Shown here: positions 25,974 to 27,474 of the stretch, piece by piece
How positions within the stretch are numbered: position 1 is the first letter of the stretch
Layout: every line of letters begins with the position of its first letter
Origin: Bifidobacterium breve
GTDB taxonomy: Bacteria > Actinomycetota > Thermoleophilia > Solirubrobacterales > Solirubrobacteraceae
Assembly: GCA_945878865.1 (NCBI GenBank)
Contig: CAMCUD010000001.1
Span: forward strand, 62,001-126,000
Length of the DNA: 64,000 nt
Reading direction: 5' to 3'
The notes under the pieces: generated by a model
What the model saw: only the letters and a program-made list of their open reading frames with translations
Database searches by the model: none
What the model was told of the DNA's origin: nothing
Made by a program: the position numbers and the translations under genes

Positions 25974-26060
25974 CTTGGCTCAAACCGCTCTCACACCGGC
26001 CGAGCCGTTCCGATGGTCAGAGCAGAACGACACGCCGCGGAGGCCTGAAGCATCCCCATC

Positions 26061-26146
26061 GGACCTCCCGACAAGAGCACACCCGCCGTGAGGCGGGGCC
26101 GCAAAGCCAGGGGTCTCACCGAGACCGCCCAGCTGCCGAAGGAGAC
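26061..26146 (+). promoter_or_regulatory. GEMM-I (cyclic dinucleotide, c-di-GMP-I class) riboswitch
   Basis: AAGAGCACA-CCCGCC(GTGA)GGCGGG-GCCGCAAAGCC-AGGGGTCTCaccGAGACCGCCC-AGCTGCCGAAGGAG: GNRA-capped hairpin, GCAAAGCC core, second stem and GCTGCCGA 3' motif as in GEMM-I; 8 nt upstream of the ATG at 26155. Confidence 0.85.
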
Positions 26147-26154
26147 CCGCCCGG

Positions 26155-27474
26155 ATGCCCGCAGTTCGCGTGCGCAGCTTCACGCTGCTCGCATTGACCA
26201 TCTTCACCACGCTGATCGCGGCGCTCGCGATCGGCGCCCCGGCGCAGGCCGCGGCGAAGAAGGCCAAGCCGAAGTGCACTCCGGCGCAGGTCGCCAAGCT
26301 CAAGGCGGCCGCCGAGCGCCAGGCGCGCAAGACGACCCGCAGCGCGTCGCGCCGTAAGGCGGCACGCGCATCGCTCCTCGCCGCCGCCCTGAAGCGCAAC
26401 GGCTGCTCGGCGCGCAAGGTCACCGAGGTCAAGACGAAGACCACGACGACCACGACGACGACCACCACGTCTTCGCCGAAGACGTCGTCGGGCGCGCCCA
26501 AGACCTCCCCCTCAGCCCCCACGAAGACCGTCGACCAGGCGCCCGCCGCGCCGACGCCGTCCCCGACCACCTCGCAGAGCTGGTGGACGGGCATGCAGGG
26601 TGGCGCCAACGCATGGGATGCGCGGGTCGGCCAGAAGCTCGGCGCGCGGATCGTGCGGGTCGAGTTCGAGATCGGGACGCCCGTCAGCTCGATGCGGTCC
26701 TTCATCGCCGACTATGCCGACCGCGGGATCCGCGTCCTGCCGCTCGCCGGCTTCTGGGGCCGCATCCCCAGCCAGAGCGAGGCCCGCAGCCTCGCCGCGT
26801 GGGCCCGCGAGTTCGGCCCCGGCGGCAGCTTCTGGGCGTCGCGCCCGGCGCAGGCCGCGCTCGCCGTCCGCCAGATCGAGTTCGGCAACGAGACGTCCTT
26901 CGCCTACCAGGGCACGCAGAAGCGCGGCGGCGAGTACGCCCAGCGCGTCCGCGACGCCGCCGAAGCGCTCGCCGGCACGCAGGTCGGCCTCCTCGTGCAG
27001 GCCGACAACGCCAACCAGAGCGACAACTGGATCGGCCAGATGTTCTCCGCCGTCCCGAACCTCGCCGACTACGTCGCCGGCTGGACCGTCCACCCGTACG
27101 GCCCGAAGAGCAAGTGGCAGAACCGCATCGACGAGGTCCTGACCCGCACCGCCGGCTACGGCGCGCCGAGCAGCATCCCGGTCGACATCACCGAGTGGGG
27201 CCTGTCCACCGACAACGGCCGCTGCCTGAACGACAACTACGGCTGGGACAAGTGCATGACCTACCAGCAGGCCGGCGACGCCCTGACGAGCACGGTCGCG
27301 GACATGAAGGCCCGCTACGGCGGCCGCATCCGCCACTTCCTCATCTACAACGGCCGCGACCTGCGCGGCGCGGGCTCCAGCAGCGACCGCGAGAACTACT
27401 TCGGCCTGACGACGCTCGACGAGCAGGACAAGGGCGGGTTCACCGCCGCCGCGAAGGCGGTGCTCGCCGGATGA
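26155..27474 (+). CDS. Secreted glycosidase-like protein (clan GH-A-like TIM barrel) with Thr-rich linker
   Basis: Signal peptide; KTKTTTTTTTTTTSSPK linker; EFGNETSF (acid/base-like NE) and DITEWGLS (nucleophile-like E). Confidence 0.72.
   Translation: MPAVRVRSFTLLALTIFTTLIAALAIGAPAQAAAKKAKPKCTPAQVAKLKAAAERQARKTTRSASRRKAARASLLAAALKRNGCSARKVTEVKTKTTTTTTTTTTSSPKTSSGAPKTSPSAPTKTVDQAPAAPTPSPTTSQSWWTGMQGGANAWDARVGQKLGARIVRVEFEIGTPVSSMRSFIADYADRGIRVLPLAGFWGRIPSQSEARSLAAWAREFGPGGSFWASRPAQAALAVRQIEFGNETSFAYQGTQKRGGEYAQRVRDAAEALAGTQVGLLVQADNANQSDNWIGQMFSAVPNLADYVAGWTVHPYGPKSKWQNRIDEVLTRTAGYGAPSSIPVDITEWGLSTDNGRCLNDNYGWDKCMTYQQAGDALTSTVADMKARYGGRIRHFLIYNGRDLRGAGSSSDRENYFGLTTLDEQDKGGFTAAAKAVLAG

What the first reader, a model, noticed from the sequence alone, without database searches (positions are those of the whole stretch)
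26051..26157. GEMM-I riboswitch with A at the ligand-discriminating position 20, controlling a secreted glycosidase
Seen: right-justifying the 5' joining segment on the GNRA-capped stem aligns AAGAGCACA|CCCGCC with Vc2 CAGGGCAAA|CCAUUC without gaps, so the Vc2 G20 equivalent is A. The rest (GCAAAGCC, GGGTCTC/GAGACC stem, GCTGCCGA) is canonical. Established: G20/A20 influences c-di-GMP versus 3',3'-cGAMP recognition in GEMM-I RNAs (GEMM-Ib class known from Geobacter). Inference: a cGAMP-responsive or promiscuous switch in an actinobacterium. CTCC (26065-26068) can pair with the SD GGAG (26141-26144), and CATCC (26051-26055) with GGATG over the start codon (26153-26157), which would suit a translational switch.
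Basis: partly seen in the sequence, partly recalled or inferred. Interest (0 to 1): 0.83.

Follow-up and report, generated by a model that had tools for sequence, protein, structure and literature searches.

The report
c-di-GMP riboswitch with one swapped base
An actinobacterium has an ordinary c-di-GMP-type RNA switch in front of a secreted sugar-cutting enzyme; one ligand-contacting base has changed in this species alone, and nothing found in the genome suggests that the switch now senses a different messenger.

Summary
Window 26067-26141 (+) is a GEMM-I (c-di-GMP-I) aptamer: RF03167 62.9 bits, RF01051 56.5 bits. The base equivalent to Vc2 G20 is A (26076) in an ungapped alignment. The inference does not hold up. 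Two congeners carry the orthologous leader and gene with G20. Of 104 aligned GEMM-I aptamers from the same order, 101 have G, two have C, and only the window has A. The second GEMM-I in this genome also has G20. So A20 looks like a recent, private substitution, not a conserved cGAMP subclass.

None of 79 GGDEF domain sequences in the genome has the Ser/Thr that marks cGAMP-making Hypr enzymes, and no DncV-type (AGS_C) or SMODS cyclase was found. Published work calls position 20 a selectivity factor, not a hard filter.

Best reading: a c-di-GMP-family translational OFF switch. Helix P1 extends into the Shine-Dalgarno site; a genus-conserved upstream hairpin can compete for the P1 5' strand. The target is a secreted clan GH-A glycosidase-like protein. 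The proposed start-codon pairing is not conserved. New member of a known kind.

The parts
26067..26141 (+). GEMM-I (c-di-GMP-I) riboswitch aptamer
   Evidence: RF03167 62.9 bits, E 1.7e-12; RF01051 56.5 bits; order-level model 86.7 bits; 14 of 19 pairs with changes on both sides over 104 relatives
26076..26076 (+). A at the Vc2 G20 / 4YAZ A14 position
   Evidence: Ungapped alignments; 101 of 104 order aptamers have G, two C, only the window A
26065..26070 (+). P1 5' strand CTCCCG; CTCC is the anti-Shine-Dalgarno part
   Evidence: Pairs with 26137-26138 and with GGAG 26141-26144 across an AA bulge; CTCC kept in G195, three of four pairs in G196
26141..26144 (+). Shine-Dalgarno GGAG inside the P1 3' strand, 10 nt before the ATG
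   Evidence: Sequence; the same arrangement in many GEMM-I of the order
26039..26068 (+). Candidate anti-P1 hairpin: GGAGG (26039-26043) pairs with CCTCC (26064-26068), inner stem CTGA/TCGG
   Evidence: Local folds -12.5 (window), -14.9 (G196), -18.1 (G195) kcal/mol with different but still paired inner stems; 0 of 40 shuffles as high for the window; not a general feature of the order
26155..27474 (+). 439-aa exported clan GH-A glycosidase-like protein
   Evidence: Signal-peptide-like N-terminus; AlphaFold mean pLDDT 85; Foldseek top PDB hits PslG and other GH-A enzymes; weak Cellulase/Glyco_hydro_cc Pfam hits among homologues; invariant E246 (FGNET) and E347 (TEWG)
25115..25882 (-). Divergent family 2 glycosyltransferase (flank)
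   Evidence: PF00535 E 1.2e-29; start of the same gene visible upstream in G195

Best explanation
A GEMM-I (c-di-GMP-I) aptamer in the 5' leader of a secreted glycosidase-like gene, acting most likely as a translational OFF switch. Without ligand, an upstream GGAGG hairpin holds the 5' strand of P1 and leaves the Shine-Dalgarno GGAG free. With ligand, P1 forms, CTCC pairs with GGAG, and translation drops. The ligand in the cell is most likely c-di-GMP. The private G20A change probably alters affinity and relaxes selectivity toward cGAMP, but the cell has no evident cGAMP maker. Shown here: aptamer identity, A20, its restriction to this species among the genomes held, the SD overlap, and the absence of Hypr, AGS_C and SMODS signatures. 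Inferred: ligand, direction of regulation, effect of A20, enzyme activity.
For: Rfam hits. Helix covariation over 104 relatives: 97% of cells paired, 14 pairs with double-sided changes, 0 of 500 shuffles as high. Orthologous leader and gene in both congeners with G20. GEMM-I loci of four other genomes of the order carry the same enzyme family (L089, L097, L153, L155), L089 and L097 with G20. 81 GGDEF matches in the genome; of 79 distinct domain sequences aligned, none has Ser/Thr at the Hypr position. P1/SD overlap and genus-conserved anti-P1 hairpin. Cd1 G11 to A, equivalent to G20A, showed no large effect (PMC9262584).
Against: No binding or reporter data. The anti-P1 hairpin rests on three sequences of one genus and is not enriched at order level. 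The window's computed apo fold already pairs the SD, with 4.3 kcal/mol to open it, so the switch could be mostly off or kinetically controlled. The transcription start is unknown. The genome is 96% complete, so a cGAMP cyclase could be missing, and only two CD-NTase families were searched.
Confidence: 0.72

Rival explanations
1. A20 makes this a physiological 3',3'-cGAMP (or dual) riboswitch.
For: Position 20 matches A14 of the Geobacter cGAMP riboswitch (numbering in PMC6274999), and J1/2 (ACAAGA) differs from that RNA's (ACAAUA; sequence of 4YAZ from memory) at one base. Vc2 G20A can bind cGAMP (PMC7288161).
Against: A20 is private to the species among genomes held; no Hypr signature among 79 GGDEF domain sequences; no AGS_C or SMODS. 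The first P2 pair is G-C as in c-di-GMP aptamers, not C-G as in 4YAZ (from memory), and lower-P2 changes affect selectivity (PMC9262584). GGDEF domains sampled from four other A20-bearing genomes are canonical wherever readable.
Confidence: 0.1
2. A20 is a partly disabling or drifting mutation: affinity has dropped and the switch is weak or constitutively off because the extended P1 pairs without ligand.
For: Private change at a base that is G in 101 of 104 relatives. The computed apo fold sequesters the SD in the window (unpaired probability about 0.01) but less so in congeners.
Against: All other aptamer features are intact and the score is high. The competing upstream hairpin is retained.
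Confidence: 0.13
3. Sequencing or assembly error at 26075-26076 (true bases CG or GG).
For: Both close relatives have CG there; the genome is a 79-contig assembly and read depth is not visible.
Against: Two adjacent differences against the congeners; no other sign of error in the leader or open frame. A relative in another genus reads ACAAGG (L089), one transition away.
Confidence: 0.05

Closest known systems
c-di-GMP-I (GEMM-I) riboswitch, RF01051, type Vc2
   Same: Three-helix fold, GNRA-capped P2, A47, C92, conserved J1/2 and J1/3; translational OFF logic reported for Vc2 (PMC9262584)
   Different: A in place of G20; A24 and A43 both C; SD lies directly in P1; upstream anti-P1 hairpin
GEMM-Ib 3',3'-cGAMP riboswitches of Geobacter (4YAZ, pilM)
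   Same: A at position 20; similar J1/2
   Different: No Hypr GGDEF detected in the genome; P2 begins G-C; single private occurrence; SD-masking arrangement
c-di-GMP-I-GGC, RF03167
   Same: Best-scoring Rfam model (62.9 bits)
   Different: Model consensus has G at position 47 and G at 20; the window has A at both. Order relatives also score on this model while having A47, so the label looks like a backbone and composition match

Membership tests
GEMM-I / c-di-GMP-I (RF01051) | Score above the Rfam gathering threshold | tested here: met
   56.5 bits against 35
GEMM-I / c-di-GMP-I (RF01051) | P2/P3 architecture with covariation | tested here: met
   97% of cells paired, 14 pairs with double-sided changes over 104 sequences
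GEMM-I / c-di-GMP-I (RF01051) | C92 and A47 at the ligand site | tested here: met
   C26136, A26103
GEMM-I / c-di-GMP-I (RF01051) | Binds c-di-GMP | not testable with these tools
   Needs in-line probing or ITC
GEMM-Ib (cGAMP riboswitch) | A at position 20 | tested here: met
   A26076
GEMM-Ib (cGAMP riboswitch) | cGAMP-producing Hypr GGDEF (Ser/Thr at the selectivity position) in the genome | tested here: not met
   None among 79 distinct GGDEF domain sequences; genome 96% complete
GEMM-Ib (cGAMP riboswitch) | A20 conserved among orthologues | tested here: not met
   Both congeners G20; 1 of 104 aptamers in the order A20
GEMM-Ib (cGAMP riboswitch) | Selective cGAMP binding | not testable with these tools
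   Needs a binding assay
c-di-GMP-I-GGC (RF03167) | Score above gathering threshold | tested here: met
   62.9 against 59
c-di-GMP-I-GGC (RF03167) | G at position 47, read from the model consensus (that the name reflects G20/G47/C92 is my inference) | tested here: not met
   A26103; A in 103 of 104 aptamers

The most novel reading that the evidence does not exclude
A single-lineage shift of a c-di-GMP riboswitch to dual c-di-GMP/cGAMP sensing in an actinobacterium, with cGAMP supplied by a cyclase of a family not searched here or missing from the assembly.
Probability: 0.07. Interest if true: 0.6.

Novelty: new member of a known kind. Interest (0 to 1): 0.24.

Why it matters
It gives a natural G20A substitution with close G20 orthologues upstream of the same gene, a clean pair for measuring what this base does in an organism that appears to make only c-di-GMP. 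It also cautions against calling cGAMP riboswitches from position 20 alone, since A20 occurs in many phyla, including genomes where the GGDEF domains sampled were all canonical.

Tried and rejected
Start-codon pairing CATCC/GGATG: in the window's fold but lost in both congeners, which have a hairpin there. Alternative pairing of the P3 5' strand GGGTCTC (26111-26117) with GAGACCC over the SD: seen by eye, not among the low-energy folds listed. Order-wide test of P1-extension pairing against shuffled partners: mean run 1.93 against 1.69, within the shuffled range, as expected when one strand is a near-invariant SD. Order-wide test of an upstream anti-P1 hairpin: not enriched (Wilcoxon p 0.46). 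Filing under RF03167: G47 not met. The primary papers of Kellenberger 2015, Ren 2015 and Weinberg 2017 are not held, so statements about them come from later papers or memory.

Full report
Observation. The Rfam scan puts a c-di-GMP-I-type aptamer at 26067-26141 (+): RF03167 62.9 bits, E 1.7e-12, and RF01051 56.5 bits. The alignment is ungapped through J1/2 and P2, so the base before the first P2 pair, Vc2 position 20, is A26076. The A47 and C92 equivalents are kept (A26103, C26136). A24 is C (26080), matched by C at position 43 (26099), a paired substitution common in the family.

Relatives. GEMM-I is widespread in this order: 132 of 232 genomes have an RF01051 match. A model from 20 of the sequences, searched over 100 sources, gave 104 aptamers. 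The helices covary strongly: 97% of cells paired, 14 of 19 pairs with changes on both sides, none of 500 shuffles as high, and every slid control far lower. At position 20, 101 have G, two have C, and only the window has A; at position 47, 103 of 104 have A.

Private change. The two held genomes of the same genus carry the orthologous leader with G20, ACAACGGCACACC, against ACAAGAGCACACC in the window, before the same gene family. The second GEMM-I in the window's genome (C16:600-690) has G20 as well. GEMM-I loci from four further genomes of the order carry this enzyme family (L089, L097, L153, L155); L089 and L097 are G20, and L089 reads ACAAGGGCACACC, one transition away. A20 is therefore most simply a recent change in one lineage. 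A base-calling error cannot be fully excluded, since reads are not available.

Ligand. Hypr GGDEF enzymes, which make cGAMP, carry Ser/Thr in place of an Asp in the guanine-binding site (PMC6456294). The genome has 81 GGDEF matches. In an alignment of 79 distinct domain sequences every one had Asp there except one degenerate domain in which the motif is absent. AGS_C and SMODS searches were negative. Of 30 GGDEF domains sampled from four A20-bearing genomes, all 27 with a readable motif had Asp. A published NMR study reports that the G20 equivalent acts as a selectivity factor, not a hard filter, and that G to A in Cd1 had no large effect (PMC9262584); Vc2 G20A can bind cGAMP (PMC7288161). So c-di-GMP is the likely ligand, with relaxed selectivity possible.

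Mechanism. CTCC (26065-26068) continues P1 and pairs with the Shine-Dalgarno GGAG (26141-26144) across an AA bulge. By a simple pattern test the SD sits just after the aptamer in about a third of the order's cases (50 of 144). A ligand-stabilised P1 would thus mask the SD. Upstream, GGAGG (26039-26043) can pair with CCTCC (26064-26068); the window and both congeners form such a hairpin (-12.5, -14.9 and -18.1 kcal/mol) with different inner stems. That would give a free-SD state without ligand. This hairpin is not general in the order. In the window the computed fold without ligand already pairs the SD, which leaves open a mostly-off or kinetic switch.

Target. ORF 26155-27474 has a signal-peptide-like N-terminus and no confident Pfam hit. 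An AlphaFold model (mean pLDDT 85) matches clan GH-A barrels, PslG first (E 2.5e-9, TM-score 0.46); homologues give weak Cellulase and Glyco_hydro_cc hits, and the glutamates of FGNET and TEWG are invariant. A secreted glycan hydrolase is likely; its substrate is unknown. Of 138 ORFs assigned downstream of order GEMM-I copies, 115 have a hydrophobic signal-like N-terminus by a crude pattern, fitting a cell-surface regulon.

Verdict. The sequence reading is right; the cGAMP inference is not supported. It is a new member of a known kind, of modest interest as a natural G20A variant with close G20 orthologues.

Noticed in passing
G000:C16:600-690 (L002): Second GEMM-I in the genome (RF01051 42.1 bits), G20, upstream of a secreted 272-aa protein; conserved in both congeners (L067, L068).
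   Followed up: partly
window 26080 and 26099; order-wide and A20 loci: Near-perfect non-canonical covariation in the P2 internal loop: A24 with A/G43 (218 cases) or C24 with C/T43 (64), three exceptions. Whether this is already described is unknown to me.
   Followed up: partly
Order-level genomes: RF03167 passes its cut-off in 95 genomes of the order although 103 of 104 aligned aptamers have A47, so the GGC label is probably misapplied to this group.
   Followed up: partly
G000, whole genome: 81 GGDEF matches in a 5 Mb genome, a large c-di-GMP network.
   Followed up: partly
L012, L017, L025, L027, L063, L085: GEMM-I upstream of type IV pilin-like prepilins (ELLVV motif) in other genera of the order.
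   Followed up: no
G170:C1 and G083:C11 (L088): Genomes with many or tandem GEMM-I copies: 10 in G170; two successive genes each with its own switch in G083.
   Followed up: no
L119 (G066): A GEMM-I with C at position 20 (CCGATAAACGCAAACC) and an SD in P1.
   Followed up: no
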